From: Rhizobium subbaraonis
Lineage (GTDB): Bacteria > Pseudomonadota > Alphaproteobacteria > Rhizobiales > Rhizobiaceae
Length of the DNA stretch: 64,000 nt
Assembly: GCF_900220975.1 (NCBI RefSeq)
Contig: NZ_OBQD01000013.1
Span: forward strand, 1-64,000
Direction of reading: 5' to 3'
In this document: piece by piece, positions 26,670-59,614 of the stretch
Layout of the letters: each line of letters starts with the position of its first letter
Numbering within the stretch: position 1 is the stretch's first letter
Notes under the pieces: model-generated
Database searches by the model: none
The model's input: the letters and a program-made list of their open reading frames with translations, nothing else
Told to the model about the DNA's origin: nothing
Translations under genes and position numbers: made by a program

Positions 26670-27166
26670 CCCAACCGAACTATTTCATGCCGCTGGAACA
26701 GACAGCCTATCAGGCGCTGGAACAGATCGCCTACCTAAAAGGCCTTTTGAAGCCTTTTAAAGGTAAGGGGAGTCTGGAGGACTGGGCCAGCCGGTGCAGC
26801 GGCCTTCGCGACGATCTCATCACGCTCGCGGAACGTCGTATCCTGCCGCAGGCCCGCAGCCATCCGTTCAGCCGGCTTCCCGTGCAACTGGCCCTGCAGA
26901 CGACCGGCGCGGGCACGACCTTCCTGCGCTGGCGCAATGCCGACCGGTCGAAAATGGGCGTCATGCTCTGGGAGGAACTGGTCTCCAGCACGGCGACCCC
27001 CGTGGCACTGGTCCCCGATCTCCTGATGATGGAGGAGCAGCGCGTCATCATCAACATGCAGGTCAGCCTGCTGCACAGCATGGTCCGGCAAGCACTGGAA
27101 TGCGCCGGCAAGCTGGAGCGCGCGGAGGACGTGGCAAAGCGCCGGGCGGCGGAGCAATCTTCATGA
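26666..27166 (+). CDS. DUF3158-family ICE protein
   Basis: A 166-residue protein: YFMPLEQTAYQALEQIAYLK, GLLKPFKGKGSLEDWASRC and a helical C-terminus. DUF3158 follows TIGR03761 in this ICE class. It overlaps both neighbours by ATGA. Function unknown, perhaps DNA processing with TIGR03761. Confidence 0.85.
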   Translation: MTQPNYFMPLEQTAYQALEQIAYLKGLLKPFKGKGSLEDWASRCSGLRDDLITLAERRILPQARSHPFSRLPVQLALQTTGAGTTFLRWRNADRSKMGVMLWEELVSSTATPVALVPDLLMMEEQRVIINMQVSLLHSMVRQALECAGKLERAEDVAKRRAAEQSS

Positions 27167-28134
27167 CGCCGCCCGAGCTGCCCGCCTGCCGATGGCTGGA
27201 TCGAACGCATATCGGCGATTGCCGTCATCTGCTGCGCCAGATGACCGAGAGTGGAATATCCGTGCAGATGTGCGTCACCAGCCCGCCCTACTATCGCCTG
27301 CGCTCCTACCTGCCGGCCGACCATCCGGACAAGGCGCTCGAACTCGGCGCCGAGGAGACGCCTGCGGTATTCGTGGCGCGGCTGGTGGAGGTGTTTCGCG
27401 AGGTGCGCAATCTGCTGGCCGATAACGGCACCCTCTGGATCGTCATCGGCGATACCTATGCCGGCACGGGAAAATCCGGCGGTGGCTGGCAGGGACGACG
27501 CTGGTATGCACATGGAGCGGAAACAATCGGTCCGCGCGGCGGCCGCTGGTCGCCGCCTCCACCCGGCCTGAAGCAGAAGGACCTGATGGGCATTCCATGG
27601 ATGCTCGCCTTCGCGCTTCGCGACGACGGCTGGTTTCTGCGGCAGGATATCATCTGGTCGAAGCCCAATCCGATGCCCGAGAGCGTCACCGACCGCTGCA
27701 CCAGATCGCACGAATACCTGTTCCTTCTCACCAAGCGGCGACGGTACTATTTCGATCACGCGGCGATCATAGAGCCTTCGCTCGATCCACGCGGGCCGGG
27801 CAACATTCGGCAGGTTCGCCTTCCGCCCGGCGAGCGCTCTTCCGGCACGAACGGCAATCTGCGCGGCGGCCTGCACAAGATCGGAGCGCGTGCCACCCGG
27901 CGCAAGCGCGACGTCTGGACGATCACCAATAAGCCATTCCACGGCGCGCATTTCGCGGCCTTTCCCGAGGAGTTGGTCGTGCCCTGCATTCTCGCCGGCT
28001 CGCGCGAAGGTGATGTCGTGCTCGACCCTTTCATGGGCAGCGGCACGACGGCCGCCGTCGCGAAGCGGCTGAACCGGCGCTTCATCGGCTGCGAACTGAA
28101 CCCCTCATTTCTCGAACTTCACCGCCTGCGCTGA
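27163..28134 (+). CDS. DNA methyltransferase, N4-cytosine/N6-adenine type
   Basis: A 323-residue methyltransferase. The catalytic TSPPYYRLR lies near residue 45 and the SAM motif LDPFMGSGTTAAVAKRLNRR near the C-terminus, an order seen in beta-class enzymes. The start overlaps DUF3158 by ATGA. No restriction endonuclease is nearby, so it is an orphan, probably protecting or marking ICE DNA. An in-frame upstream extension has no similarity and was dropped. Confidence 0.9.
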   Translation: MTPPELPACRWLDRTHIGDCRHLLRQMTESGISVQMCVTSPPYYRLRSYLPADHPDKALELGAEETPAVFVARLVEVFREVRNLLADNGTLWIVIGDTYAGTGKSGGGWQGRRWYAHGAETIGPRGGRWSPPPPGLKQKDLMGIPWMLAFALRDDGWFLRQDIIWSKPNPMPESVTDRCTRSHEYLFLLTKRRRYYFDHAAIIEPSLDPRGPGNIRQVRLPPGERSSGTNGNLRGGLHKIGARATRRKRDVWTITNKPFHGAHFAAFPEELVVPCILAGSREGDVVLDPFMGSGTTAAVAKRLNRRFIGCELNPSFLELHRLR

Positions 28135-31805: not shown

Positions 31806-33548
31806 ATGACCCCGCACCCCCGTACCTATGGCAGCGTCTGCTCCGGCATCGAGGCCGTCACCCTCGCCTGGAAGCGGCTCGGATGGAGGCCGGCCTGGTT
31901 CTCCGAGATCGATCCGTTTCCTAACGCCGTCCTCGCCCATCACTATCCGCACATCCCCAACCTCGGCGACATGACGGGCATCGCGGCCCGCGTGCGCGCA
32001 GGTGTCGCCACCGCGCCCGACATCCTCGTCGGCGGCACGCCTTGCCAGGCGTTTTCCGTCGCCGGCGCGCGGCAAGGCCTTTCCGATCCGCGCGGCGCCC
32101 TCACCCTCAAATACACGGAGCTTGCAGATGCCATCGACCAAACTCGCCGGGAAAACGGCCAACCGCCCGCCATCGTCGTCTGGGAGAACGTCCCCGGCGT
32201 CCTCTCCGACAAATCCAACGCCTTCGGATGCCTTTTGGGAGCGCTGGCCGGAGAAGGCGGCGCGCTGGAGCCGGCAGGGCGAAGGTGGTCGAACGCTGGT
32301 TGTGTCGCTGGACCCCGCCGCCGCGTCGCGTGGCGGGTGCTCAACGCGCAATATTTCGGAGTCGCCCAACGGCGCCGTCGCGTGTTTCTTGTGGCAAGTG
32401 GTGATGCGGGATTCGATCCCGCCGCGGTACTTTTTGAGCCCTATCGCCTGCCAGGGGATTCTTCGCCGGGCGGCGCGGCGTGGGAAATCGCTTCCGGATC
32501 TGCTGAAGGCGGCCCTGACGGCGCAGGCGGCCTATCCGACGCTCTGGCCGGACCCTATGGCCGGGCATTTTGCACCGTCTGCTTCGGCGGCGGCAACCGG
32601 CAAGGCCCGATCGACCGCGCAGCCTGCCTGACGGCGCGCGGCCACAAGTGCGATTTCGAGGTCGAGACCTTCGCGGCCCAGTCCGTCACCGGAGAGCGGA
32701 CCCATGCTCTCAACACGGCAAACGGCGGCAAGGGCGGCAGCGAGGACGGAACCGGGCGCGGCGTGCCGATCGTCGCGCATTCCGTCGCCTTCGCGCAAAA
32801 CAGCCGCGGCGAGGTCCGGCTCGAGGCGGGCGACGGCCACATCGCGGGAACGCTGAACACCGGCGGCGGCAAGCCCGGGTACGGCATGCCGGCGATCGCC
32901 TGCCGCGATCAGGCGCCGGCGCCGTTCCCGACCATCGCGTTCTCGGCAAAGGATCACGGCGGTGATGCTTTGGAAGATATCGCGCCGACGCTGCGCGCCG
33001 GCGTCCGATCCAACGGCAATGCGAATGGCGGCGTCATGCCGGCCATCGCCTTCAGGACCCTCCGTGCCACCTTCGGGCACGAGGTCTCCGGCACGTTGAT
33101 CAGTCACTACGGCAAGAAGACGGAAAACGCAGACACGAGCCTCGGGCCAAACCTGGTCGCCCGGTCCGTTGCGTTGCGCGGCCGAGACGGCGGCGCGACA
33201 GTCGAACTGGGCGACGAGGTCGCCACCGCGCTACGCGCCAGCGGCGGCGGCAGCGACAAGGCCCATGTCCTGCTGCCGTCGACCGAGGACTATTTCTACG
33301 GCCAGATGCTCGGCCCGGACGAAACCGACTGGTCGCAATGGGCGGGCTGGCGCGTCCGCCGCCTCATGCCGGTCGAGTGCGAGCGCCTGCAGGGCATGCC
33401 GGACAACTACACGCTGGTGCCGTATCGCGGCAAACCGGCGGCCGACGGCCCGCGCTACAAGGCGATCGGCAATTCCATGGCCGTTCCCTGCGTGGAATGG
33501 CTTGGTCGGAGGATCGCTCTGGTTCTGGCGACACGCGAAGCTTGGTGA
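31806..33548 (+). CDS. dcm: DNA cytosine-5 methyltransferase
   Basis: A 580-residue m5C methyltransferase. GSVCSGIEAVTLAWKRLGW is motif I, GGTPCQAFSVAG motif IV with the catalytic Cys, VVWENVPGVL motif VI and the C-terminal PRYKAIGNSMAVPCVEWLG motif X. The target-recognition part (about 240-500) is enlarged and contains internal repeats of a TL-[NR]-gG...GMPAIA kind, typical of phage and ICE enzymes. No cognate nuclease is adjacent. Confidence 0.93.
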   Translation: MTPHPRTYGSVCSGIEAVTLAWKRLGWRPAWFSEIDPFPNAVLAHHYPHIPNLGDMTGIAARVRAGVATAPDILVGGTPCQAFSVAGARQGLSDPRGALTLKYTELADAIDQTRRENGQPPAIVVWENVPGVLSDKSNAFGCLLGALAGEGGALEPAGRRWSNAGCVAGPRRRVAWRVLNAQYFGVAQRRRRVFLVASGDAGFDPAAVLFEPYRLPGDSSPGGAAWEIASGSAEGGPDGAGGLSDALAGPYGRAFCTVCFGGGNRQGPIDRAACLTARGHKCDFEVETFAAQSVTGERTHALNTANGGKGGSEDGTGRGVPIVAHSVAFAQNSRGEVRLEAGDGHIAGTLNTGGGKPGYGMPAIACRDQAPAPFPTIAFSAKDHGGDALEDIAPTLRAGVRSNGNANGGVMPAIAFRTLRATFGHEVSGTLISHYGKKTENADTSLGPNLVARSVALRGRDGGATVELGDEVATALRASGGGSDKAHVLLPSTEDYFYGQMLGPDETDWSQWAGWRVRRLMPVECERLQGMPDNYTLVPYRGKPAADGPRYKAIGNSMAVPCVEWLGRRIALVLATREAW

Positions 33549-33641
33549 CGTTTCAGGCCGAAGGCCACGAAATGCGCTATCGGCCACAGTGGTATTGTGG
33601 CTGGCATTTCTCCGTAAGCCACACATCTTGTCCAGCGTGTG

Positions 33642-33769
33642 GCCGACGTTGTCGGCGCATGTCCCGGCAGCCTCGGTCGTAACGGCTGCAACGCGGCCCC
33701 CGCGTCGACCGATCCAGTCCGCGTCGCATCGTTTCCGCGGACGAGCGCCATCACGGCGCCGATGCTCCC
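33642..33769 (+). ncRNA. Five-hairpin structured element, copy 1
   Basis: Hairpins: GCCGAC-gtt-GTCGGC (33642), GCAGCC/GGCTGC (33667/33684), ACGCGG-ccc-CCGCGT (33691), GTCCGC/GCGGAC (33717/33737) and GCGCC/GGCGC (33745/33755), then GATGCTCCC. It ends 123 bases before the next gene (33893). The H4 loop GCATC could pair with the GATGC tail. Confidence 0.7.
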
Positions 33770-34156: not shown

Positions 34157-34316
34157 CCGTGGCATCCTGTGCTGCAACAGGATCTCCACCTTCGTCCCGC
34201 CGTGCGGTGCGGAGCGGGAGCGCTCCTTTTCTTAACGCAGGCAAATCGGGGCTTGCCGTCGTGCGGCTTCCTCCACGACTGCCACAGAAAAGAGGGACAG
34301 AGTTGCGGCCGTTACT

Positions 34317-34440
34317 GCCGAGGTTCTCGGCGTGATGCCAGCAGCCCGGTCTTCAGGCTGCGACGTGGTTCTCCGCGTCAGACCGCCTGTCCGCTTCACA
34401 TCGTTCCCGCGGACGAACGCCCTACCGGCGTGATGCTCCT
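34317..34440 (+). ncRNA. Five-hairpin structured element, copy 2
   Basis: GCCGAG-gtt-CTCGGC (34317), GCAGCC/GGCTGC (34341/34356), GACGTGG-ttct-CCGCGTC (34362), GTCCGC/GCGGAC (34389/34409), ACGCC-ctacc-GGCGT (34417), then GATGCTCCT. Pair 6 of hairpin 1 is flipped relative to copy 1 (C-G to G-C). The next gene starts 118 bases on. Confidence 0.7.
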
Positions 34441-36123: not shown

Positions 36124-36235
36124 CAAACCTGCGGGCGCTCTTCGGAGCGCCCATTCTTTTGAAATCGGGGCGGATCACTGTGCCGTTTCCGGCACGACGG
36201 GCGCGTCCTCACACGCCATGCTGGCCTCATATGTC

Positions 36236-36366
36236 GCTGATGTCTTCAGCACATGCCAGCAGTCCCGGTCTTTTACGACTGCGCCACGGTTTCCACGTGG
36301 TCGACCGATCCAGTCCGCTTCGCATCATTCTTTGCGGACAAACGCCTCCCAGCGTTCGATGCTCCC
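36236..36366 (+). ncRNA. Five-hairpin structured element, copy 3
   Basis: GCTGA/TCAGC (36236/36246), GCAGTC/GACTGC (36259/36277), CCACG/CGTGG (36284/36296), GTCCGC/GCGGAC (36313/36334), AACGC-ctccca-GCGTT (36341), tail GATGCTCCC. Several pairs differ from copy 1 by double changes that keep pairing. An intrinsic terminator follows at 36435. Confidence 0.7.
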
Positions 36367-38078: not shown

Positions 38079-38167
38079 CTTTGCCCGCCGATCGAATGCG
38101 GTGATCGCCGGATGCCGATTGCCGCGTGCCTGACGCGCCTCGGCAATGCCATTCTCGCCGCATGTTC

Positions 38168-38230
38168 GCTGGCGTCGCCGGCAACATCCCAGGCAGTCGA
38201 GACCTTGAAGACTGCGGCGCGGCTCGCCGT
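38168..38230 (+). ncRNA. Five-hairpin structured element, partial copy
   Basis: GCTGGC-gtc-GCCGGC (38168) and GCAGTC-N11-GACTGC (38193/38210) match hairpins 1 and 2 of the full copies in pairing, loop length and spacing; GGCG/CGCC (38216/38225) may be hairpin 3. Hairpins 4 and 5 are not recognisable. It lies about 100 bases before the gene at 38333. Confidence 0.5.
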
Positions 38231-38332
38231 TCCGGTCATTTTCCTCACAGGGCATTGAGCCCGATTTTCCAACCCTCAAGGGATCACCTCCCTTGCGGAC
38301 GGGGTCCCTTCTCTTCCCAAGGGAGTCACCCC

Positions 38333-41377: not shown

Positions 41378-41542
41378 TTCGTTGGCCCTCCCCTCGGACC
41401 TTCGGCACTTTAGCATCCATTCGACGGAAGTGCAGACACCCGTACCCACCGGAGTTTTCCGTGTTGGAGAATAGGGACGCGGACCGGAACCGATTTCCGG
41501 TGGCCCCCGGCATCTATCGGTGCAACGCTTTCCCCGTATCTC

Positions 41543-41673
41543 GCTGACTTTGTCGGCGACATGCCCAGGTAGCCACCGATCCTCAAGGCTACGACGCGGT
41601 CCCGGCCGCGTGATCGACCAGTTCGCTCAGGCATCCCCGGCGAACAGCCGCCCTGACCGGCGGTGATGCCATC
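41543..41673 (+). ncRNA. Five-hairpin structured element, copy 4
   Basis: GCTGAC-ttt-GTCGGC (41543), GTAGCC/GGCTAC (41569/41587), ACGCGG-tcccgg-CCGCGT (41594), GTTCGC/GCGAAC (41621/41640), CCGCC-ctgacc-GGCGG (41648), tail GATGCC. Both arms of hairpins 2 and 4 changed together relative to copy 1. GGCATC in the H4 loop can pair with GATGCC. The DUF3577 gene starts 112 bases on. Confidence 0.75.
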
Positions 41674-44381: not shown

Positions 44382-45491
44382 ATGGCTCTCATGTTCCCCC
44401 GTCTTGCGCGAAACTTCGCCAAGAACGGATATTATCCCACGGACGAGCCGACGCTCGAACGCACACTGAACGCCCTTCAGCCGGCGGCGGGACCGATGAA
44501 CATCATCGACCCCTGCGCCGGCGAAGGCGTCGCCATCGCCGAGGCGGCGCATGTCCTCGGCCGCGATCTGGTCCTCGCCCATGCCGTCGAGTTCGACGCC
44601 GAACGGGCAAGGCATGCCCGCGGCCTCGTGGATCGCTGCATTCACGGCGATGTCATGGACACGCTGATCTCGCGCCAGTCCTTCGGCCTTCTCTGGCTCA
44701 ACCCGCCCTACGGCGATCTTCCCAAGGACGACAACGGCATCCAGCGTCATCAGATCCAGGGTCGCCCGCGGCTTGAAAAGCTGTTCTATCAACGCAGCCT
44801 GCCGCTCCTGCAATATGGCGGCGTGCTGGTCTTCATCGTCCCGCACTATACTCTCGACGCCGAGGTCGTGGGCTGGCTAACCCGCCATTTCACGGACCTG
44901 CGCATCTACCGTGCGGTCGAAACGCAGTTCAAGCAGGTGGTGATCTTCGGCAAGCGCGTCCGCAACCGCGAGCTTGCAAGTGCCGCCGCCAAAACCTTCC
45001 GTGACCGTCTGTTGCAGATCGGCGCGGGCGAGATCGAGGCGGAGGAACTGCCGGCCGAATGGCCACTGCAGCCTTATGCTGTACCAGTGGCCCAGGCCGA
45101 GCCGGAGCAGTTTTATCGGATATCGATGGAGCCGGAGCAGTTCGCCGAGGAGGTCCATCGTCTTCAGGGCCTCTGGCCCTCGGTCGAGACGCATCTCGGC
45201 GCCGCGCAGCAATCGTTGCGCCGGCCCGCGCGTGCCCTCTCCCAATGGCACCTCGCCCTGGCGCTCGCCGCCGGTGCGATCTCCGGCGTCGTCACCTCGA
45301 CGTCCGGCAAGGTCATGGTCGTCAAGGGCGACACCCACAAGGAAAAGTCCCAGACGCTGGAATACACCGAGCGCGAAGACGGCTCCGTCGCCGAGACCCG
45401 CATTCTCACGGACAAGTTCGTGCCCGTCATCCGCGCATGGGACATGACGCCCGGCTCCCCGACACGGGGCCAGGTGCTCACCATCCGCTGA
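44382..45491 (+). CDS. DUF6094-type SAM-dependent methyltransferase
   Basis: A 369-residue protein. MNIIDPCAGEGVAIAEAAHV is SAM motif I and LLWLNPPYGD the catalytic NPPY of N6-adenine-type amino-methyltransferases. The protein begins MALMFPRLARNFAKNGYYPT, as other ICE members do. The C-terminal half (about 230-369) is unassigned. It probably modifies DNA or RNA; no restriction partner is present. Confidence 0.85.
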   Translation: MALMFPRLARNFAKNGYYPTDEPTLERTLNALQPAAGPMNIIDPCAGEGVAIAEAAHVLGRDLVLAHAVEFDAERARHARGLVDRCIHGDVMDTLISRQSFGLLWLNPPYGDLPKDDNGIQRHQIQGRPRLEKLFYQRSLPLLQYGGVLVFIVPHYTLDAEVVGWLTRHFTDLRIYRAVETQFKQVVIFGKRVRNRELASAAAKTFRDRLLQIGAGEIEAEELPAEWPLQPYAVPVAQAEPEQFYRISMEPEQFAEEVHRLQGLWPSVETHLGAAQQSLRRPARALSQWHLALALAAGAISGVVTSTSGKVMVVKGDTHKEKSQTLEYTEREDGSVAETRILTDKFVPVIRAWDMTPGSPTRGQVLTIR

Positions 45492-49309: not shown

Positions 49310-50506
49310 ATGGTCCACCGGAGTTGCTGCATCGTGGGCGCGGGTCCCGCCGGGTTGATGCTCGGCCTTTTGCTCGCACGTGCTGGCGTCGATGTGACGG
49401 TCGTCGAGAAGCACGGGGATTTCCTGCGCGACTTTCGCGGCGACACCGTCCATCCTTCCACGCTGGAGGTGATGCACGAACTGGGCCTTCTCGACGGATT
49501 GCTGCAACTGCCGCACACGCAGGCGCCAAAACTTCATGCCGAGATCGGCGGCAAGGACATCACCATCGCCGACTTCTCGCGCCTGCCAACGAAATGCCGT
49601 TTCATCGCCTTCATGCCGCAATGGGAATTCCTCGACTATGTGGCGCGCGAAGCAGGGCGGCTCCCAAATTTCCACCTGCTTATGCGCGCGCAGGTGACGG
49701 CGCTCTTCGAAGCGGAAGGGCGCATCGCCGGCGTCCGCGTCGCCACGGCGGATGGGGAGACGGATATCAGGGCCGCGCTGGTCGTCGGCGCGGACGGGCG
49801 CAACTCCGTCGTGCGGGAGAAGGCCGGGCTGGAGATCGAGCGCTTCGGCAGCCCGCGCGACGTGCTGTGGATGAAGCTCTCGCATCAGCCCGACGATCCG
49901 CCCTATGTCATGGGCCACGGCGGGCCGAGGCAGGGGTTCGTGATGGTCGACCGCGGCGATTATTGGCAATGCGGCTATGTGGTGCGCAAGGGCTCCTATG
50001 CGGATGTGAAGGCGGCCGGCATCGATGCTTTCCGGGAGGCCGTCGCCGCCGTTTCGCCGCTGCCGCCGGAACGGATGCAGGAGGTCCGCTCCTGGGATGA
50101 CGTGCATCTGCTGAGCGTGCGGATCGACCGGCTCAAGCGCTGGTGGCGGCCGGGCCTTCTATGCATCGGCGATGCGGCGCACGCCATGTCGCCGATCGGC
50201 GGATTCGGCGTCAATCTGGCGATCCAGGATGCGGTCGCCACCGCGAACATCCTTGCCGGCCCGCTTCGCGACGGCACCTTGGCCGACAGGCATCTCGCCG
50301 ACGTGCAGGCGCGACGCTCGTTTCCGACCAAGGCGACGCAGAAACTGCAACTGATGATGCAGCGCGACCGCAGCAAGCGCGAGGCGGAGGACAAGCGGCG
50401 CGAGGGGCCGCCCTCCTTCATGCGCGGCATCGCACGCTGGCCCGTGCTTGCCCATCTCGCCGGCCGCCTGGTCGGGCTCGGCTTCCGGCCGGAGCATATC
50501 CGGTAG
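49310..50506 (+). CDS. Flavin-dependent monooxygenase (PHBH fold)
   Basis: A 398-residue class A flavoprotein monooxygenase. CCIVGAGPAGLMLGLLLARA is the GxGxxG FAD motif, VVGADGRNSVVREKAG the DG motif and LCIGDAAHAMSPIGGFGVNL the GD motif. It hydroxylates an aromatic or related compound using NAD(P)H and oxygen. It precedes the conjugation genes on the same strand and is metabolic or detoxification cargo. The substrate cannot be told. Confidence 0.88.
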   Translation: MVHRSCCIVGAGPAGLMLGLLLARAGVDVTVVEKHGDFLRDFRGDTVHPSTLEVMHELGLLDGLLQLPHTQAPKLHAEIGGKDITIADFSRLPTKCRFIAFMPQWEFLDYVAREAGRLPNFHLLMRAQVTALFEAEGRIAGVRVATADGETDIRAALVVGADGRNSVVREKAGLEIERFGSPRDVLWMKLSHQPDDPPYVMGHGGPRQGFVMVDRGDYWQCGYVVRKGSYADVKAAGIDAFREAVAAVSPLPPERMQEVRSWDDVHLLSVRIDRLKRWWRPGLLCIGDAAHAMSPIGGFGVNLAIQDAVATANILAGPLRDGTLADRHLADVQARRSFPTKATQKLQLMMQRDRSKREAEDKRREGPPSFMRGIARWPVLAHLAGRLVGLGFRPEHIR

Positions 50507-50625: not shown

Positions 50626-51213
50626 ATGCGCTTCACCAGCCAAATCCGTCGCAAACTTACGGGTTGCGGTTCTGTCCTGATTGTCGCCATGGCGACGGCA
50701 GGGTGCTCCACAATCGCCGAGCCTCCGGAGCCGACGCCTGTTCGGCCCGTCTCTTTTCCTCTGGCGGAACCGGATCCCGACTTCATTCCCGTCCTGCGTC
50801 AGGGTCGCTACACCCTGGTCGAGCTTGCGCCGGCATCGGCGCAGCGGGATCTGATGCGACAGGTGGTCACGGTTTCCCTTCCCGAGGGCCGCAGAAGCAC
50901 GGTCGGCGACGCCCTGCGGCAGATCCTGTCCCGCTCGGGCTACAAGCTGTGCTCCGCCGATGATGCCGCCACGCTGTCGGCGCTGCCCTTGCCGGCCTCA
51001 CACCATCGCCTCGGACCGCTGATGCTGCGCGACGCGCTCCTGACGCTGTCCGGATCGGCATGGAACCTGCAGGTCGATGACAGGACCCGCACCGTCTGCT
51101 TCTACCGCGCACCGTTCCCCGCCTTCGCCGCCAGCGAGATGAAACCCGACTTCGACACGACCAGGGTCGCCGCCCTCAGCACCCACGCTGTCGCCAGGAA
51201 AGCAAAGCCATGA
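50626..51213 (+). CDS. PilL-type ICE lipoprotein (TIGR03748-like)
   Basis: A 195-residue protein. The signal VLIVAMATAGCSTI has a lipobox Cys near residue 27. The rest (FIPVLRQGRYTLVELAPASA, then GDALRQILSRSGYKLC) matches the PilL N-terminal domain of PFGI-1-class ICEs, an outer-membrane-side part of the transfer apparatus. It overlaps TIGR03759 by 4 bases and opens the conjugation operon. Confidence 0.85.
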   Translation: MRFTSQIRRKLTGCGSVLIVAMATAGCSTIAEPPEPTPVRPVSFPLAEPDPDFIPVLRQGRYTLVELAPASAQRDLMRQVVTVSLPEGRRSTVGDALRQILSRSGYKLCSADDAATLSALPLPASHHRLGPLMLRDALLTLSGSAWNLQVDDRTRTVCFYRAPFPAFAASEMKPDFDTTRVAALSTHAVARKAKP

Positions 51214-51959
51214 CGACGTTGAGATTCAAGCGGTCCGCACATCCCCTCGCCCTCGCCCTCGTCCTCGGTCTTTCCGTCTGGTGCTGCCTGCCCGCCAACG
51301 CGCAGGATTCGCGCTCGGCCGCCTCGACGAATGTCCCGAGCCGAGAACAGCCGGCCGTCGTTGAACGAAGCGACGAACAGAAGGCGAGCGACTGGGGCCT
51401 GCGCGAGGAGGAATGGGCGCGATACCGCGCCGTCATGCAGGGACCGCTCGGCATCCAGTCCCCCAACCTCGATCCGCTGACGGCTCTCGGCATCGAAGCG
51501 CGCTCCGACGAGGAGCGGCGGCGCTATGCGGAGTTGCAGGTCGGGATCGAAGCGCGCCGGGTCGAGAAGCTGCTGGCCTACCAACGCGCCTACGACGAGG
51601 CCTGGCAGCGCCTGCACCCCGACATGGAACGCATCAGCGCATCGCTGACGGACACCGACGCATCTGCCGGCGAAGTGGGTCGGCTCGCCGTCTTCGTGAA
51701 GGATGGATGCCCCTCCTGCGACCGGACCGTGCAGCGGCTCCAGACGGCCGGAACGGAATTCGATCTCTATGTCGTCGGAAGCCGGCAGGACGATACCCGC
51801 ATCCGCGACTGGGCGAAAGGCGTCCGGATCGATCCCGGCAAGGTCCGCGCCGGCGCGATCACGCTGAACCACGATTCCGGCCGCTGGCTGTCGCTCGGCC
51901 TTGAGGGAGACCTGCCCGCCGTCGTGCGGCAGGTGAACGGTCAATGGCAGCGCCAGTGA
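51210..51959 (+). CDS. TIGR03759-family ICE protein
   Basis: A 249-residue exported protein (signal peptide to about residue 31, PANA|QD). ASDWGLREEEWARYRAVMQG, GIQSPNLDPLTALGIEARSD and the C-terminal thioredoxin-like VFVKDGCPSCDRTVQRLQTA are family marks. CPSC may be redox active. It overlaps both neighbours. A periplasmic part of the transfer system. Confidence 0.9.
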   Translation: MTTLRFKRSAHPLALALVLGLSVWCCLPANAQDSRSAASTNVPSREQPAVVERSDEQKASDWGLREEEWARYRAVMQGPLGIQSPNLDPLTALGIEARSDEERRRYAELQVGIEARRVEKLLAYQRAYDEAWQRLHPDMERISASLTDTDASAGEVGRLAVFVKDGCPSCDRTVQRLQTAGTEFDLYVVGSRQDDTRIRDWAKGVRIDPGKVRAGAITLNHDSGRWLSLGLEGDLPAVVRQVNGQWQRQ

Positions 51960-52510
51960 TGCGCACCGCCCTCGCGACCGCGGTCCTGATCGCCGGCACG
52001 TTCGGGGCCAGCCCGGTCTTGCCGCAGGAGGTTCCGCCTCCGGCCTACCAGATCGCCGCGCAGCGTGCCGGCGTCCCCTCGCCGGTCCTCTATGCCATCG
52101 CCTTGCAGGAGAGCGGGATACGCAAGGGCGGCCGCGTCATCCCCTGGCCGTGGACCTTGAACGTCGCGGGTGCCGGCCGCCGGTTCGACAGCAAAGCGGA
52201 GGCCTGCGCCGGTTTGAGCCAGGCGATGCGGGAAGCTCCCCTGACGCGCGTCGACGTCGGCCTCGGTCAGATCAATCTCGGGTATCAGCAGCATCGTTAC
52301 GATCATCCCTGCGACCTGCTCGACCCCTACCGCAATCTCGTCATCGCCGCCGAGATCCTGAAGGAGCAGCACAATCCCGGCGAGGAATGGATGCTCGCCA
52401 TCGGCCGCTACCATCGCCCGGCCGGCGGCCCGCCAGCGGCGCGCTATCGCCGCAGCGTCGGCCAGCATCTCGCCCGCGTGCTCGGCGTTCCCGGCAAGCG
52501 AAGGGATTGA
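51944..52510 (+). CDS. Lytic transglycosylase (SLT domain) of the transfer system
   Basis: A 188-residue exported protein; after the signal peptide, APPAYQ-type start leads to VPSPVLYAIALQESGIRKGG with the catalytic Glu, and VDVGLGQINLGYQQHRYDHP. It opens peptidoglycan for the secretion channel, as VirB1 does. AGGTGA lies 8 bases before ATG 51944; ATG 51959 (TGATG overlap) is an alternative. Confidence 0.9.
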   Translation: MAAPVMRTALATAVLIAGTFGASPVLPQEVPPPAYQIAAQRAGVPSPVLYAIALQESGIRKGGRVIPWPWTLNVAGAGRRFDSKAEACAGLSQAMREAPLTRVDVGLGQINLGYQQHRYDHPCDLLDPYRNLVIAAEILKEQHNPGEEWMLAIGRYHRPAGGPPAARYRRSVGQHLARVLGVPGKRRD

Positions 52511-52513
52511 GCG

Positions 52514-53593
52514 ATGCCGTCCCTCATCGTTCCGCGCCGGCAGGCCTATCCGCCATCAAGACGCCCACGCCATTCCCTGTTCCGCAACAGGCCGGCGGAT
52601 GGCGACGAGACGTTCCAGCATCTGGTCAACGTGTCGGGCGGCAAGGACAGCACGGCCGTCTATCTGCTGGCGCTGGAAGCTGGCCGCCCGTTTCGCGCGG
52701 TGTTCGCCGATACCGGCCATGAGCATGAACTGACCTATGAGTTCGTCTCGCGCCTTTCCGAGCGCACGGGCGGCCCGCCGATCGAGATCGTCCGCGCCGA
52801 CTTTTCCGCACGGCTCGCCAGTCACCGCAACTACATCCTCCGCGAATGGCCGAAACAGGGCGTACCGGACGAGATTGTCGCGGAAGCGGCCGCCCTCAAC
52901 GTGCCGACAGGCATTCCCTTTCTAGACCTCTGCATCTGCAAGGGTCGCTTCCCGAGCAGGATGGCGCAATTCTGTTCAGAGGAGCTGAAATCCCTGCCGA
53001 TAACCTTGCAGGTCGTCTTTCCGATGCTGCGCAACGGCCCGGTTCTGCAATGGCTCGGCATCCGCGCCGCCGAAAGCCACAATAGGGCGAAGCTGCCGTT
53101 CTGGAACCGCCATGACAGCGGCTGCATGCTCTGGCGGCCGATCTTCCGGTGGTCGGTCGATGATGTCTGGTCGATGCACCGGCGGCACGGCATCGCCCCG
53201 AACCCGCTTTATGGGCTTGGCATGGGCCGCGTCGGCTGCATGCCCTGTATCAACTGCCGCAAGAACGAGCTGCGCGAGATCGCATCGCGCTTTCCCGAGC
53301 ATATCGAGCGGGTGGCGCGCTGGGAGGCGATCGTCTCCGCCGCGAACAAGCGCCGCGTCTCGACCTTCTTCGCCGCGCTGAAGGACCCGATGGATGTGGA
53401 TCGGCCCGGCACCTATGCCGGCATCCACACCGTCGTCGAGTGGAGCCGCACCAGCCGCGGCGGGCGGCAATATGAACTGTTCTTCGACGGTCAGGCCGGC
53501 AGCGGCTGCAATTCCGATCTGGCACTCTGCGAATGGAATGAGGCGCAGCGCAACACGATTGATCTCGCCGCCCTCGCACCGCCGGTCTCATGA
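52514..53593 (+). CDS. PAPS-reductase-like PP-loop protein with cysteine clusters
   Basis: A 359-residue protein. The PP-loop SGGKDS is at residues 41-46. Cys140, Cys142 and Cys154 (LCICKGRFP, FCSEELK) and C242-x2-C245-x2-C248 (GCMPCINCRKNE) could hold an Fe-S cluster, as in PAPS reductase and DndC relatives. Such enzymes activate a substrate with ATP for sulfur or nitrogen chemistry. It starts 4 bases after the transglycosylase stop and overlaps the DpdA-like gene by ATGA. It is not QueC. Its substrate is unknown; a role in nucleic acid modification is inferred from the next two genes. Confidence 0.8.
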   Translation: MPSLIVPRRQAYPPSRRPRHSLFRNRPADGDETFQHLVNVSGGKDSTAVYLLALEAGRPFRAVFADTGHEHELTYEFVSRLSERTGGPPIEIVRADFSARLASHRNYILREWPKQGVPDEIVAEAAALNVPTGIPFLDLCICKGRFPSRMAQFCSEELKSLPITLQVVFPMLRNGPVLQWLGIRAAESHNRAKLPFWNRHDSGCMLWRPIFRWSVDDVWSMHRRHGIAPNPLYGLGMGRVGCMPCINCRKNELREIASRFPEHIERVARWEAIVSAANKRRVSTFFAALKDPMDVDRPGTYAGIHTVVEWSRTSRGGRQYELFFDGQAGSGCNSDLALCEWNEAQRNTIDLAALAPPVS

Positions 53594-54297
53594 GGCCGTG
53601 CATGATCCACTATCACGGCACGCCCCTCACCCCGCGATCCGAGCTGGCCAAGCTGGCGGGCAGACATTTCTGCGTCTCGTTTGCGGCGGCCCAGGACGCC
53701 GACTGGTGCCTCGCGCACGGCCAGTCGGTCATGTGGGACAGTGGCGCGTTCTCCGCCTTCACCCGCGGGCACAGCGTCGAATGGGACAGCTATTACCGCT
53801 GGTTGGAGCCGCGCATCGGCGGTGAGAACTGGGCCGTCATTCCGGACGTGATTGACGGCACGGTGGAGGCACAGCGAGAGCTAGTCCAGCAATGGCCGTA
53901 TCCGCAGGTGGCCGGCGCCCCGGTCTGGCATATGGCGCTGCCGGTCGACTATCTCCTCGAACTCGCCGATGGCTGGCCGCGCATCTGTTTCGGAAGCTCC
54001 GGCCTCTATTGGCAGGTGGGATCGGAAGCCTGGCGTCGCAGGGCCGATGAGGCGTTCAACGCGCTTGCCCGGGGCGGCCACATTCCATGGCTGAAGGTCC
54101 ACATGCTGCGCGGTCTGCGGCTTGCCGGGGAACGCTGGCCCTTCGCCTCGGCCGACAGTGCGAACGTTGCCCGGAACTTCAAGAATATCGGTGCGGAAGC
54201 ATGCCCCGAGAGGATGGTCCGGCGGATCGACGCCGAGCAGTGCCCGATCGCCTGGACCGAGCGAACCATCAGGAGGGAGCCGTTCCATGGGCCTTAA
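53590..54297 (+). CDS. DpdA/TGT-like transglycosylase (7-deazaguanine insertion)
   Basis: A 235-residue protein with the motif order of tRNA-guanine-transglycosylase-like DpdA proteins: MWDSGAFSAF (Asp50, DSG-F), WAVIPDVIDG (81-90), CFGSSGLYWQVGS (133-145), KVHMLRG (169-175) and FASADSANVARN (185-196, Asp189). Asp50 and Asp189 are the candidate base and nucleophile. DpdA swaps guanine in DNA for a 7-deazaguanine. At 235 residues it is short, like phage DpdA2 types. It overlaps the genes on both sides (ATGA; 11 bases). A tRNA or RNA substrate cannot be excluded. Confidence 0.75.
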   Translation: MRPCMIHYHGTPLTPRSELAKLAGRHFCVSFAAAQDADWCLAHGQSVMWDSGAFSAFTRGHSVEWDSYYRWLEPRIGGENWAVIPDVIDGTVEAQRELVQQWPYPQVAGAPVWHMALPVDYLLELADGWPRICFGSSGLYWQVGSEAWRRRADEAFNALARGGHIPWLKVHMLRGLRLAGERWPFASADSANVARNFKNIGAEACPERMVRRIDAEQCPIAWTERTIRREPFHGP

Positions 54298-54862
54298 GGC
54301 GATTTCCCTGATCGCGGCCTTCGCCGCGACCGTTCCCCTCGCGAACTGGATGATCGGCAATGTCGGAACCAGATGCGTTCCGGATGGGCCTTGCACCATC
54401 CCGGTCGGCTTCGGGCTCGAAGCACCCAGCGGTGTCCTGGTCGTTGGCGCGGCGCTCGTGCTGCGCGATCTCGTTCAGGAGGCTGGCGGGATTCGCGCCG
54501 CGCTGGCGGCCGTCGCCATCGGCACCGCGCTCTCCTGGTTCATCGCGCCGCCCGCGCTTGTCGTTGCTTCGGCCTCTGCCTTCGTTCTGGCGGAGCTGAC
54601 GGACCTCGCCGTCTATACGCCGCTCCGCGTGCGCAGGCCCGGCTTGGCCATCATCGCAAGCGGCAGCGCCGGCGCGCTGGTCGACAGCGCGGTCTTCCTC
54701 TGGCTCGCCTTCGGATCGGTCGATTTTCTCGCCGGACAAGTCGCCGGAAAGCTCTGGTTTAGCCTGCTGGCGGCGCCGGTCATCGTGCTCGCGCGCAGGC
54801 ATTCCGGTCGCGCCGGCTTCTCCATTCCCCCCGAGCCCACTGCAAGGAGCAAATCCTCATGA
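54287..54862 (+). CDS. VUT/YhhQ-family queuosine-precursor transporter
   Basis: A 191-residue membrane protein with about five or six hydrophobic segments. ANWMIGNVG, VPVGFGLEAPSG-like IPVGFGLEAPSGVLVVGAAL, LRDLVQEAGG, ASAFVLAELTDLAVYTPLR and LVDSAVFLWLAFGS are marks of the VUT (YhhQ) family, which imports preQ0/preQ1. AGGAGGGA lies 8 bases before the ATG. It would supply the base used by the DpdA-like enzyme. It overlaps the TIGR03765 gene by ATGA, so the cassette is in the transfer operon. Confidence 0.88.
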   Translation: MGLKAISLIAAFAATVPLANWMIGNVGTRCVPDGPCTIPVGFGLEAPSGVLVVGAALVLRDLVQEAGGIRAALAAVAIGTALSWFIAPPALVVASASAFVLAELTDLAVYTPLRVRRPGLAIIASGSAGALVDSAVFLWLAFGSVDFLAGQVAGKLWFSLLAAPVIVLARRHSGRAGFSIPPEPTARSKSS

Positions 54863-55410
54863 CCCATCGCTCGATTTCCGGGACACGCATCACCGTGTCC
54901 ATCTTCGTCTGCTTGTTGGCCGGCTCTTCGGTGCTCGCCCAGTCCCAGCCGCTGATCGTGGTCGAGGATCATGGCGGGATCTCCGCCCTTCCCTTCTACC
55001 AGGCCCTCGATCTGCCGCCGAAGCAGGGGCAGCCCGTTCCGCCGATCACCGCCGTCCCCGCGACGCCGCGAACGGTCTTTTCCGAGGCCGACATGCTGCC
55101 GGTCCGCTCGGATCGCCTGTCACAAGGCGACGAGCCGCGCCGGGTCATTCAGGCGCCCGGCCTCACCCCGATGTTCCTGGTCGGCGACGACGAGCGATCC
55201 CGTGCCTGGCTCCGCGAGCGCGGCCACATCCTGCGCGACCTGAACGCCGTCGGTCTGGTGGTCAATGTCGAGACGGCCGAGGCGCTGGCGAATCTCCGCA
55301 AGTTGGCCGGCAGCCTGACGCTCTCGCCCTCCTCCGGCGACGATCTCGCCGGGCGGCTGGGCCTGCGCCACTATCCGGTGCTGATCACCGCGACCGGCAT
55401 CGAGCAATGA
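54859..55410 (+). CDS. TIGR03765-family ICE protein
   Basis: A 183-residue exported protein (signal peptide to about residue 27). LIVVEDHGGISALPFYQALD, then PVRSDRLSQGDEPRRVIQAP and GLTPMFLVGDDERSRAWLRE match the PFL_4695-type family. It normally follows the transglycosylase directly; here the three-gene cassette separates them. Transfer-apparatus part. Confidence 0.9.
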   Translation: MTHRSISGTRITVSIFVCLLAGSSVLAQSQPLIVVEDHGGISALPFYQALDLPPKQGQPVPPITAVPATPRTVFSEADMLPVRSDRLSQGDEPRRVIQAPGLTPMFLVGDDERSRAWLRERGHILRDLNAVGLVVNVETAEALANLRKLAGSLTLSPSSGDDLAGRLGLRHYPVLITATGIEQ

Positions 55411-55420
55411 GGCGGCGGCC

Positions 55421-57592
55421 ATGGCCAATCCCCATTCGGTCGAAGTGCTGCTGCGGCCGGCAGTTGAGCTCTACACCGTCGCCGTCTGCGCCGGCGCGGC
55501 GCTGGTCTGCGTCGTTGCCCCCTGGTCGCTGGCGCTGAGCCCGGTTCTCGGTCTCGGCTCCTCTACCGCGTTCCTCACCTTCGGCGCGATCCGCCTGCGT
55601 GACGCGCTCTCGATCCTGCGCTATCGCCGCAACATCCGCCGCCTGCCGCGCTACATCATGACCAGCGGGAGCGTTCCGGTCAGCCGGCAACGCCTGTTCA
55701 TCGGCCGTGGCTTCCGCTGGGAGCAGCGGCACACCCATCGCCTGATGCAGACCTACCGGCCGGAGTTCCGGCACTATGTCGAGCCGACGGCGCTCTACCG
55801 GTTCACGCGCCGCCTCGAGCAGCGGCTGGAGTTCGCGCCGCATCCGCTCTCAAAACTCGCCCGGCTGACCGCATGGGACAGTCCGCTCAATCCGGTGCGA
55901 CCGCTACCGCCGGTCGGCGGCATCCCGCGCCTGCACGGGATCGAACCGCATGAGATCGACGTCACCTTGCCGCTCGGCGAGCGCGTCGGACACTCCCTCG
56001 TCCTCGGCACCACCCGCGTCGGCAAGACGCGGCTGGCCGAACTGTTCATCACCCAGGACATCCGCCGGAAAACTGCAGATGGCGAGCACGAGGTGGTGAT
56101 CGTTCTCGATCCCAAGGGTGACGCGGATCTGCTCAAGCGGATGTATGTCGAGGCTAAGCGTGCCGGCCGCGCTGGCGAATTCTACTGTTTCCATCTCGGC
56201 TGGCCGGATATTTCCGCGCGCTACAACGCCGTCGGCCGCTTCGGTCGGATTTCCGAAGTCGCCACGCGCATCGCCGGCCAGCTTTCCGGTGAGGGCAACT
56301 CAGCGGCCTTCCGCGAGTTCGCCTGGCGCTTCGTCAACATCATCGCGCGGGCGCTGGTTGAGCTGGGGCAGCGGCCGGACTACCTGCTGATCCAGCGGCA
56401 CGTCGTCAATATCGACGCGCTGTTCATCGAATATGCTCAGGCGTTTTTCGCCCGGCACGAGCCGAAGGCCTGGGAGGTTATCGTCCAGATCGAGGCGAAG
56501 CTCAACGAAAAGACCATCCCCCGCCACATGGTCGGCCGCGAGAAGCGTGTCGTCGCGCTCGAACAGTATCTGTCGCAGGTCCGGGTGTACGATCCGGTGC
56601 TCGACGGGCTGCGCTCGGCCGTGCGATACGACCGGACGTATTTCGACAAGATCGTGGCCTCGTTGCTGCCGCTCCTCGAAAAGCTGACCACCGGCAAGAC
56701 GGCGCAGCTCCTCGCGCCGAACTATTCCGACCTCAACGATCCGCGCCCGATCTTCGACTGGATGCAGATCATCCGCAAGCGCGCCGTCGTCTATGTCGGG
56801 CTGGATGCACTCTCAGACGCGGAGGTCGCCGCCGCCGTCGGTAATTCCATGTTTTCCGATCTCGTCTCCGTCGCCGGCCATATCTACAAGTTCGGGATCG
56901 ATGACGGCCTGCCCGGCGCCGACGCGGGAAACAAGGTCCCGATCAACGTCCATGCCGACGAGTTCAACGAGCTCATGGGCGACGAGTTCGTGCCACTCGT
57001 CAACAAGGGTGGTGGCGCGGGACTTCAGGTCACCGCCTATACCCAGACCCTCAGCGACATCGAGGCGCGCATCGGCAATCGCGCGAAGGCCGGACAGGTC
57101 GTCGGCAACTTCAACAACCTGTTCATGTTGCGCGTGCGCGAGACCGCCACGGCCGAACTGCTGACCAGGCAACTGCCCAAGGTCGAGGTCTATACGACGG
57201 CGATCGTCAGCGGCGCGACCGACAGTTCGGATATCCGCGCGAAGACGGATTTCACCAGCAATACGGCCGACCGGATCACCAGCTCATCCGTTCCGATGAT
57301 CGAACCGGCGCACGTCGTCGGCCTGCCGAAGGGACAGGCCTTCGCGCTGCTGGAAGGTGGCAATCTCTGGAAAATCCGCATGCCGCTTCCCGCACCCGAT
57401 CCGGACGAGGAGATGCCGAAAGACCTGCAGCAACTCGCCGGCTACATGCGTCAGCACTATGTCGAGGCCGCCGACTGGTGGTGGGACAATCAGGGTGTTC
57501 CCGATCTCCAGGATGCCCCGCTGCCGGACGATCTGCTCGACAGCTTCCGGCATCTGGAGATGGACAAGGACGCGGGTGAGGTTACCCCATGA
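55421..57592 (+). CDS. traD: TraD-type conjugative coupling protein
   Basis: A 723-residue ATPase. Two N-terminal membrane segments (about 15-60) precede Walker A LVLGTTRVGKTRLAELFITQ near residue 195, with INVHADEFNELMGDEFVPLV as Walker B and AGLQVTAYTQTLSDIEARIG as a later motif. It links the relaxosome to the secretion channel (type IV coupling protein, TIGR03743-like). It overlaps TIGR03747 by 4 bases. Confidence 0.93.
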   Translation: MANPHSVEVLLRPAVELYTVAVCAGAALVCVVAPWSLALSPVLGLGSSTAFLTFGAIRLRDALSILRYRRNIRRLPRYIMTSGSVPVSRQRLFIGRGFRWEQRHTHRLMQTYRPEFRHYVEPTALYRFTRRLEQRLEFAPHPLSKLARLTAWDSPLNPVRPLPPVGGIPRLHGIEPHEIDVTLPLGERVGHSLVLGTTRVGKTRLAELFITQDIRRKTADGEHEVVIVLDPKGDADLLKRMYVEAKRAGRAGEFYCFHLGWPDISARYNAVGRFGRISEVATRIAGQLSGEGNSAAFREFAWRFVNIIARALVELGQRPDYLLIQRHVVNIDALFIEYAQAFFARHEPKAWEVIVQIEAKLNEKTIPRHMVGREKRVVALEQYLSQVRVYDPVLDGLRSAVRYDRTYFDKIVASLLPLLEKLTTGKTAQLLAPNYSDLNDPRPIFDWMQIIRKRAVVYVGLDALSDAEVAAAVGNSMFSDLVSVAGHIYKFGIDDGLPGADAGNKVPINVHADEFNELMGDEFVPLVNKGGGAGLQVTAYTQTLSDIEARIGNRAKAGQVVGNFNNLFMLRVRETATAELLTRQLPKVEVYTTAIVSGATDSSDIRAKTDFTSNTADRITSSSVPMIEPAHVVGLPKGQAFALLEGGNLWKIRMPLPAPDPDEEMPKDLQQLAGYMRQHYVEAADWWWDNQGVPDLQDAPLPDDLLDSFRHLEMDKDAGEVTP

Positions 57593-58338
57593 GCGATCCG
57601 GCCGCCGCAGCCGCCAGGCAACAGGACCGCCAGCAAGGGCTGATCGCCGGCCTGATTATGCTGCCGTTCCGTATGCTCGGCGTGCTTGCCGGCTCGCTCC
57701 TCCTCAGCATCGCCATCGAATGCGTCTGCATGTATTTCTTCTGGCCGGAGGAAGGCTGGCATCATGCGTCCTCCATGCTCGACCATGAACTCGCCCAGCT
57801 CTCGCAGAATTTTACGCGCAGCGCCGTGGTGCAGGAGCCAGGCCGGACCGCGCATTGGCTGGTCGAGCAGGCCTATGAATGGATTTTTGTGAAGAGCGGG
57901 CTGACGGAATGGATGGCGTCGGCGTCGAGCCAGGCGAGCGCTCCCGCCCGCGGCGCGGCCCGCGATTTCCGCTACTATATCAGCCTCGTCTATGTCTGGA
58001 CCGAAAGCTATCTGATCGCCGCCGCCTTCGTGCTGCTGGTGTTCATCGTCCGCTTGCTCGTGCTGGTCCTCACCCTGCCGCTATTCGTCCTCGCGGCCTT
58101 CGTCGGCCTGGTCGACGGTCTTGTCCGGCGAGACATCCGCCGGTTTGGCGCGGGCCGTGAATCCGGGTTCGTCTATCACCGCGCCAAGGCCTCGCTGATG
58201 CCGCTCGCCGTCGCGCCGTGGGTGATCTACCTCGCCTTGCCCATCAGCGTGCATCCGCTGCTGATCCTGCTGCCGAGCGCCATCCTGCTCGGCATCGCGA
58301 TGGACGTTTTCGCCGGAAGCTTCAAGAAGTACCTCTAA
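57589..58338 (+). CDS. TIGR03747-family ICE membrane protein
   Basis: A 249-residue membrane protein with about four hydrophobic segments. GLIAGLIMLPFRMLGVLAGS, FFWPEEGWHHASSMLDHELA and VGLVDGLVRRDIRRFGAGRE match the family that follows TraD in this ICE class. It overlaps traD by ATGA. Probably aids the coupling protein. Confidence 0.92.
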   Translation: MSDPAAAAARQQDRQQGLIAGLIMLPFRMLGVLAGSLLLSIAIECVCMYFFWPEEGWHHASSMLDHELAQLSQNFTRSAVVQEPGRTAHWLVEQAYEWIFVKSGLTEWMASASSQASAPARGAARDFRYYISLVYVWTESYLIAAAFVLLVFIVRLLVLVLTLPLFVLAAFVGLVDGLVRRDIRRFGAGRESGFVYHRAKASLMPLAVAPWVIYLALPISVHPLLILLPSAILLGIAMDVFAGSFKKYL

Positions 58339-59356: not shown

Positions 59357-59455
59357 CCCGATCCCTTTCCAAACATCCTGCAGGCTTCGCCGGCCGATGC
59401 CCCTCATACTATCCGACGGCGCTGGCATCCAGATTCAAACGGAACCTGGAAACAG

Positions 59456-59614
59456 AAAAGCCTGCCGCGGGAGGAGGTGCGGCAGGCTTTTCAAACTGTG
59501 ATCGGCAACCGGGAGGAGGAGTGCCGCCGATCCGTTGCGACCGATCCTGGGAGGAGGAGTGGATCCGTCGCGATATGACGTTCGTGGGAGGAGGTACGAA
59601 TGTCATGGGAGGAG
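59456..59614 (-). ncRNA. Cuckoo-type small RNA with CUCCUCCC hairpin loops
   Basis: Four tandem hairpins each show GGGAGGAGG (CCTCCTCCC on the reverse strand) in the loop: ATGAC-g-TTCGT/ACGAA-t-GTCAT (59575-59606), GCGAC-c-GATCC/GGATC-c-GTCGC (59537-59571), GATCGGC/GCCGATC (59500-59532) and AGCCTGCCGC/GCGGCAGGCT (59459-59488). A fifth motif is unpaired at 59607-59614. The last hairpin, with TTTTC after it on the reverse strand, is a terminator. Anti-Shine-Dalgarno loops of this kind define the cuckoo family. Confidence 0.8.

What the first reader, a model, noticed from the sequence alone, without database searches (positions are those of the whole stretch)
52514..54862. Deazaguanine-type modification cassette built into the conjugation operon
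A PP-loop PAPS-reductase-like protein, a DpdA/TGT-like transglycosylase and a VUT/YhhQ-like preQ0/preQ1 transporter sit between the transglycosylase and TIGR03765 genes, which are normally adjacent. All junctions are 4-base gaps or stop/start overlaps, so the cassette is made together with the transfer apparatus. DpdA with YhhQ is known from phage and island DNA modification. No QueC, QueD, QueE or FolE is present, so the base would have to be imported. Hypothesis: the ICE marks its DNA with a 7-deazaguanine to escape restriction in the recipient, and the PP-loop enzyme may tailor the base.
Basis: partly seen in the sequence, partly recalled or inferred. Interest (0 to 1): 0.93.

Follow-up and report, generated by a model that had tools for sequence, protein, structure and literature searches.

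The report
DNA-base swap module inside conjugation operon
A mobile element in a relative of rhizobia carries, inside the gene block that builds its DNA-transfer machine, a phage-type pair of genes that probably imports an unusual guanine-like base and swaps it into DNA, which may help the element survive enzymes that cut foreign DNA.

Summary
The three genes are real and placed as described: between the transglycosylase and TIGR03765 genes of a PFGI-1-class ICE. That interval holds room for the transglycosylase only in 15 of 15 comparison elements. Rhizobium sp. ACO-34A has the same three-gene insertion, and all three genes look to be under purifying selection. The 53602-54297 protein is a short phage-type DpdA (phrog_887, with the 9g and MED16 DpdA). 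Its partner is the VUT transporter: in IMG/VR, 21 of 23 DpdA loci carry VUT and 61 of 75 VUT loci carry DpdA, against 0 of 80 PP-loop loci with either. This pairing marks the close subfamily; most isolated phages with distant DpdA kin lack the VUT. The PP-loop gene is a separate, common phage gene. In the host, TGT, QueF and a YhhQ were found and QueC was not, so the base is probably imported. Restriction evasion is plausible but unproven: phage MED16, with a homologous DpdA, has about 0.13% of G marked and most enzymes tested still cut (PMC8306585, passages). A new variant of a known kind.

The parts
51944..52510 (+). Lytic transglycosylase (SLT) of the ICE transfer operon; upstream border of the insertion
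   Evidence: PF01464 E 3.6e-7; neighbour of TIGR03765 in comparison elements
52514..53593 (+). PP-loop PAPS-reductase-like protein, 359 aa, phrog_424 family (kin of phage 186 Orf84, distantly of lambda NinC); probably an independent passenger
   Evidence: PF01507 E 3.9e-27, phrog_424 E 3.5e-67, 72% to Stenotrophomonas phage S1 gp30 and 44% to phage 186; model (pLDDT 75.4) nearest CysH
53602..54297 (+). Short DpdA-type transglycosylase, 231 aa from the likely start 53602 (ORF open from 53590)
   Evidence: phrog_887 E 1.4e-44, the family that also holds 9g DpdA and MED16 DpdA; D46, H110, D185 in 82 of 82 aligned rows including 9g; TIM-barrel model, pLDDT 85.4
54287..54862 (+). VUT/YhhQ-like transporter, 191 aa, phrog_4899 family; regular partner of DpdA in the close subfamily
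   Evidence: PF02592 37.8 bits, phrog_4899 E 1.3e-36; DpdA linkage
54859..55410 (+). TIGR03765/DUF2859 ICE protein; downstream border of the insertion
   Evidence: TIGR03765 136.3 bits, PF11072 E 3.6e-55
55421..57592 (+). TraD coupling protein (TIGR03754), next gene of the operon
   Evidence: 1104.5 bits against a cut-off of 647.55

Best explanation
A two-gene phage-type module, a small DpdA base-exchange enzyme plus a VUT importer, was installed with a probably unrelated phage PP-loop gene inside the T4SS operon of a rhizobial PFGI-1-class ICE and has been kept there by selection. Shown by computation: family membership of DpdA and VUT, their linkage in viral contigs, co-linearity with the transfer operon, purifying selection, and no QueC found in the host. 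Inferred: VUT brings in preQ0 (or preQ1 or another 7-deazaguanine); DpdA exchanges it for guanine in double-stranded DNA in transfer-competent cells; the transferred strand carries the marks into the recipient, where the freshly made duplex is partly shielded from enzymes that read guanine. Carrying its own importer would help the device work in hosts, such as this one, that seem unable to make preQ0.
For: DpdA: phrog_887 for the window, MED16 and 9g proteins; hhalign to MED16 DpdA probability 100, E 2.2e-44 and to 9g DpdA probability 90, E 1.5e-6 over 93 columns; D46, H110 and D185 in 82 of 82 rows including 9g, H167 (aligned with 9g H196) in 81 of 82; 9 of 23 BFVD structural matches at E <= 1e-3 are named queuine or queuosine tRNA-ribosyltransferase. 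Linkage: 21 of 23 and 61 of 75 against 0 of 80 in PP-loop control loci; 8 of 8, 32 of 41 and (for DpdA) 0 of 36 after 90% clustering; same strand in 95 of 95 loci with both, the window's own and some contigs counted more than once. VUT also sits beside a different DpdA family (PF23859) in phage phiLM21 (= L137) and in L192. Host: TGT, QueF and YhhQ found, QueC not; the three weak QueC hits read as MnmA-, NadE- and ArgG-like proteins (my reading). Selection: dN/dS 0.139, 0.135 and 0.231 with dS 0.73-0.82, like the flanking genes.
Against: No chemistry on this element. The DpdA profile does not align significantly with true TGTs (hhalign 0.3% and 1.9%), and the 50 PDB structure matches listed show no TGT, none at E <= 1e-3. 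The pairing is not general: 105 phage records match this DpdA but only 7 match this VUT, none of the 26 features annotated around MED16 gp38 is a transporter and tblastn finds no VUT there, and VUT accompanies DpdA in 14 of 40 genomic loci. Fourteen of 75 VUT loci lack this DpdA family; two of them have the other one. MED16 dADG is about 0.13% of G and most enzymes tested still cut; phage Orion, DpdA-only, had no modification, which its authors expected because neither phage nor host makes preQ0 (PMC8306585 and PMC6884629, passages). The host's own YhhQ should already import the precursor.
Confidence: 0.5

Rival explanations
1. The DpdA-like protein exchanges a base in tRNA rather than DNA, and VUT salvages queuosine precursors for translation in a host that cannot make them.
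For: The superfamily includes tRNA transglycosylases; the host looks like a precursor salvager (TGT, QueF, YhhQ found, QueC not).
Against: The family members with data (9g, MED16) belong to phages with modified DNA (PMC6884629, PMC8306585, passages); the host already has a TGT and its own YhhQ; the protein lacks the CxCxxC zinc motif of TGT (read from the sequence; motif recalled) and does not align with TGT profiles.
Confidence: 0.15
2. The mark is real but serves something other than bulk restriction evasion: a sparse or sequence-specific mark that counters one defence system, or tags element DNA for regulation or exclusion.
For: Low dADG level and little enzyme protection in MED16 (PMC8306585, passages); the ICE also carries DNA methyltransferase genes of its own (31806-33548 PF00145; 26794-28134 CcrM-like), so protection may be shared among several marks.
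Against: No target site or sensor protein identified here.
Confidence: 0.25
3. The block is a passenger: phage genes that landed in a tolerant gap of the operon with no role in transfer.
For: All three genes have phage relatives; the insertion is rare, seen here in two elements only.
Against: dN/dS 0.135-0.231 at dS about 0.8, tight spacing and preserved reading frames in both elements.
Confidence: 0.1

Closest known systems
Singleton DpdA of phages, e.g. Pantoea phage MED16 gp38 (dADG-modified DNA)
   Same: Same phrog_887 family; hhalign probability 100; same D46/D82/H110/H167/D185 residues
   Different: Phage-borne; none of the 26 features listed around gp38 is annotated as a transporter and tblastn finds no VUT in that stretch; about 37% identical
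DpdA-VUT pairs in phages (Pseudanabaena phage Pam5, Rhizobium phages RHph_N3_2 and RHph_X2_30, IMG/VR contigs up to about 70% identical in DpdA)
   Same: Same two families next to or near each other on one strand
   Different: None of these 98 IMG/VR loci has the ICE genes searched for, and a PP-loop gene occurs in 1 of 98 (L138)
Bacterial dpd island (Salmonella Montevideo; PMC6159554, passages)
   Same: A transglycosylase-centred 7-deazaguanine DNA mark on a genomic island
   Different: [quoted passage not shown] here there are two module genes, no synthesis gene among the operon genes scanned, and the site is inside a T4SS operon
PFGI-1-class (MPF_G) elements such as pKLC102 and ICEhin1056
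   Same: Same T4SS gene order around the site
   Different: No genes between the SLT position and TIGR03765

Membership tests
Phage DpdA (9g/MED16 type) | Match to the remote-homology family holding characterised DpdA | tested here: met
   phrog_887: window E 1.4e-44, MED16 E 3e-70, 9g E 2e-98
Phage DpdA (9g/MED16 type) | Shared conserved residues, including the histidine at position 196 named in PMC6884629 | tested here: met
   9g D72, H141, H196, D215 align with window D46, H110, H167, D185; D82 is not shared by 9g in that alignment. Which residues are catalytic is inferred. I take the paper's position 196 to be 9g numbering, which fits the residue found
Phage DpdA (9g/MED16 type) | Inserts a 7-deazaguanine into DNA | not testable with these tools
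   Needs LC-MS
Phage DpdA, Pfam PF23859 | Pfam DpdA model PF23859 | tested here: not met
   0 of 34 alignment members match it or PF01702; nor do 9g or MED16 DpdA, while phiLM21 DpdA matches PF23859
Canonical tRNA-guanine transglycosylase | PF01702 or profile similarity; CxCxxC zinc site (motif recalled) | tested here: not met
   No Pfam hit; hhalign 0.3% and 1.9%; no CxCxxC in the sequence
QPTR/YhhQ (COG1738) transporter | PF02592 above cut-off | tested here: met
   37.8 against 27.2 bits
QPTR/YhhQ (COG1738) transporter | TIGR00697 equivalog above cut-off | tested here: not met
   34.3 against 50.95 bits
QPTR/YhhQ (COG1738) transporter | Transport of preQ0/preQ1 | not testable with these tools
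   Needs uptake assay
Assimilatory PAPS reductase (CysH) | NCBIfam cut-offs | tested here: not met
   PRK02090 57.6 against 154 bits, cysH TIGR00434 39.4 against 165.1; the PF01507 domain itself is met
QueC | PF06508 above cut-off (PP-loop protein) | tested here: not met
   17.2 against 22 bits
PFGI-1-class ICE | T4SS/ICE signature models above cut-off | tested here: met
   TIGR03759, 03765, 03754, 03747; TIGR03748, 03746, 03749, 03744, 03761, 03764
PFGI-1-class ICE | Integrase and att ends | not tested
   Ends of the element were not mapped
Bacterial dpd island | Further dpd genes and preQ0 synthesis genes beside dpdA | tested here: not met
   The genes scanned at 50626-58338 are ICE genes plus the three inserted ones; the rest of the element was scanned only in part

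The most novel reading that the evidence does not exclude
Transfer-coupled DNA hypermodification: a conjugative element that makes a base-exchange enzyme and the importer of its precursor together with the transfer apparatus, so that the transferred strand arrives already carrying an imported 7-deazaguanine and escapes the recipient's restriction.
Probability: 0.3. Interest if true: 0.85.

Novelty: new variant of a known kind. Interest (0 to 1): 0.6.

Why it matters
Guanine-replacing DNA marks are known from phages and from chromosomal islands. Finding the exchange enzyme and an importer written into the transfer operon of an ICE would extend them to conjugation and makes a clean test possible: delete two genes, measure bases and transfer. 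For this DpdA subfamily the tight pairing with VUT also suggests where a DpdA without synthesis genes may get its base; an earlier survey reported no correlation between YhhQ homologues and any phage group (PMC6884629, passage).

Tried and rejected
PP-loop as base-tailoring partner: rejected as a general rule (0 of 80 PP-loop viral loci with DpdA or VUT; 1 of 98 DpdA- or VUT-fetched loci with a PP-loop gene). It is not excluded for this element: 5 of 40 genomic DpdA loci have a PP-loop gene in the fetched stretch, in three of them just upstream of DpdA (L273, L274, L250, and for L273 and L250).

PP-loop as QueC, making preQ0: rejected (PF06508 below cut-off; structure nearest to CysH). PP-loop as a DNA-sulfur or defence enzyme: not followed; PADLOC's best weak matches are SspD (E 1.4e-14) and BrxP (E 3.1e-12).

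Direct TGT homology: profile comparison with 29 TGTs and with the host TGT gave nothing significant. Membership rests on the DpdA family instead. Sequence profiles of DpdA and VUT found no solved structure.

Close relatives in genome contigs from the single sequence: none; the alignment query found 40 loci, none with the ICE genes that I searched for. preQ1 riboswitch: none in the window at gathering scores. Literature: searches for 7-deazaguanine with integrative and conjugative element, and for deazaguanine with conjugative and anti-restriction, listed 7 papers each. Of these 14 I read passages of three (PMC10269627, PMC6159554, PMC12137116); none of those passages describes a DpdA in a conjugation operon; the other eleven I saw only in the listing. 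One search listed only unrelated papers, and one on the insertion site was seen as a listing only.

Full report
Observation. Upstream are TIGR03759 and SLT; downstream come TIGR03765/DUF2859, TraD TIGR03754 and TIGR03747. All are ICE models well above cut-off except SLT, which is a Pfam domain match. Further ICE models (TIGR03748, 03746, 03749, 03744, 03761, 03764) match elsewhere in the window and just beyond it, so this is a PFGI-1-class element. I did not map its ends. Three genomes that the tool calls same family (G045, G178, G269) have hit contigs of the same lengths as contigs titled Ensifer, Metarhizobium and Rhizobium (358195, 216142 and 183395 bp), so I take the host to be one of the Rhizobiaceae (inference).

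The insertion. The 6 plasmids are my pick from 63 matching records; I left out the window's own genome and G339, which is below the cut-off. The ACO-34A element has the same three genes in the same order. Between the two elements all three keep open frames, with dN/dS 0.139 (PP-loop), 0.135 (DpdA) and 0.231 (VUT) at dS 0.73-0.82, close to the flanking transfer genes (dS 0.58-0.88, dN/dS 0.071-0.306). The block has therefore travelled with the transfer operon for some time and under selection. It is rare. TIGR03765 itself matched 1 of 101 relatives, 3 of 385 genomes of the class (2 over the cut-off) and 10 of 398 of the phylum (9 over), the window's own genome counted in each. DpdA kin occur in 4 of 297 genomes of the family, window included; a separate draw of 397 genomes of the order gave only the window. 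None of 40 DpdA loci from named genomes shows the ICE genes that I searched for.

The DpdA-like protein. Pfam, NCBIfam and PADLOC are silent, but PHROGs puts it in phrog_887 together with the DpdA of Enterobacteria phage 9g and of Pantoea phage MED16. Profile comparison gives probability 100 with MED16 DpdA and 90 with 9g DpdA, the latter over 93 columns only. In an alignment of 82 sequences D46, H110 and D185 are invariant, H167 is present in 81 (one gap) and aligns with 9g H196, and D82 is present in 81, with 9g the exception. The model is an eight-stranded, TIM-barrel-like fold, pLDDT 85.4 (the count of strands is my reading). Against viral models there are 23 matches at E <= 1e-3, 9 of them named queuine or queuosine tRNA-ribosyltransferase, the others without a function name. 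Results against: of the PDB matches I saw the 50 listed, among which are various TIM barrels but no TGT, with none at E <= 1e-3, and comparison with 29 TGTs finds no significant alignment. I therefore file it as phage-type DpdA, not as TGT.

Which genes belong together. In IMG/VR, loci fetched with DpdA carry VUT in 21 of 23 cases; loci fetched with VUT carry DpdA in 61 of 75; loci fetched with the PP-loop protein carry DpdA or VUT in 0 of 80. The VUT scan kept 80 of 92 loci; 5 of the 80 were already in the DpdA set and are not in the 75. The PP-loop scan kept 80 of 197. One of the 75 VUT loci, L138, has a PP-loop gene as well. After clustering at 90% the counts are 8 of 8, 32 of 41 and, for DpdA beside the PP-loop, 0 of 36. 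Where both DpdA and VUT are found they are on one strand in 95 of 95 loci, DpdA first in 85; this set includes the window several times and some contigs twice. Two of the 14 VUT loci without this DpdA (L137, which is phage phiLM21, and L192) have a DpdA like the PF23859 protein of phiLM21. The same transporter thus occurs with two DpdA families, which argues that it feeds the exchange reaction.

Limits of the linkage. These scans start from the window's own sequences and so sample close kin. Among isolated phages 105 records match the DpdA, all under 60% identity, but only 7 records match the VUT. MED16 shows no VUT in the stretch fetched, and in genomic loci VUT accompanies DpdA in 14 of 40. 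The pair is a feature of this subfamily, not of phrog_887 as a whole.

The PP-loop protein is a widespread phage protein in its own right: 72% identical to Stenotrophomonas phage S1 gp30, 44% to phage 186 Orf84, and distantly related to lambda NinC. Its model (pLDDT 75.4) is nearest PAPS reductase. C242, C245 and C248 (GCMPCINC) are invariant in 17 sequences, which would suit a metal or Fe-S site (inference). PADLOC's weak best matches are SspD and BrxP, so a role in DNA sulfur chemistry or defence is open.

Host. The window's genome has TGT, QueF and a chromosomal TIGR00697 transporter (in two pieces each over the cut-off). QueC was not found: three weak hits, none over the cut-off, while the same search rang in 12 of 14 control genomes, 9 over the cut-off. 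I read the three as MnmA-, NadE- and ArgG-like. The genome is listed as 100% complete. FolE, QueD and QueE were not searched in the genome. Precursor import thus seems a host habit already, which supports an imported base but also makes the ICE's own importer partly redundant at home; it would matter more in other recipients or under demand.

Mechanism. Most likely VUT imports preQ0 or a close relative and DpdA places it in DNA while the transfer genes are expressed. The benefit in restriction is inference. The relative with data is sobering: MED16 DNA held dADG at about 0.13% of G, and most enzymes tested still cut it (PMC8306585, passages). Of two DpdA-only phages in PMC6884629, 7-11 had a trace of dADG and Orion none, the latter expected by its authors (passages). 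A sparse or targeted mark is a serious rival. The ICE also carries a C5-cytosine methyltransferase domain (31806-33548), a CcrM-like match (26794-28134, far below the model's cut-off) and a DUF6094 putative methyltransferase (44382-45491), so DNA marking seems to be a theme of this element.

Verdict. Observation confirmed; interpretation partly supported; the trio is best read as a DpdA-VUT pair plus an independent PP-loop gene. New variant of a known kind, interest 0.6. On re-checking I added the phage counts that limit the DpdA-VUT pairing; I left the odds as they were because the pairing in close kin stands.

Noticed in passing
window 33626-33765, 34300-34436, 36218-36362, 38151-38302, 41525-41669 (+): Five radC RNA motifs (RF01754), all above the gathering score, within about 8 kb of the ICE.
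   Followed up: no
window 59453-59577 (-): Alphaproteobacterial ar14 small RNA (RF02344), 111 bits, inside the transfer region.
   Followed up: no
window 26794-28134, 31806-33548, 44382-45491: Three DNA-methyltransferase-like genes carried by the ICE (CcrM-like but below the cut-off, C5-cytosine, DUF6094).
   Followed up: partly
L235 4441-5010: In a Pantoea agglomerans plasmid a gene annotated restriction endonuclease sits with small overlaps between TIGR03765 and TraD of the same operon type: another DNA-defence gene built into this operon.
   Followed up: no
L273 7938-8780 and 9001-9768; L274 similar layout: In two Acidobacteria a PP-loop gene (phrog_424 in L273) lies just upstream of a DpdA of this family; the place where the PP-loop-DpdA idea gets some support.
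   Followed up: partly
window 49310-50506 (+): FAD-dependent monooxygenase-like protein just upstream of the PilL2 gene (read from the translation only, no family scan).
   Followed up: no
L267 8968-9680: In Ensifer aridi the DpdA relative is split over two reading frames while its VUT neighbour is open.
   Followed up: no
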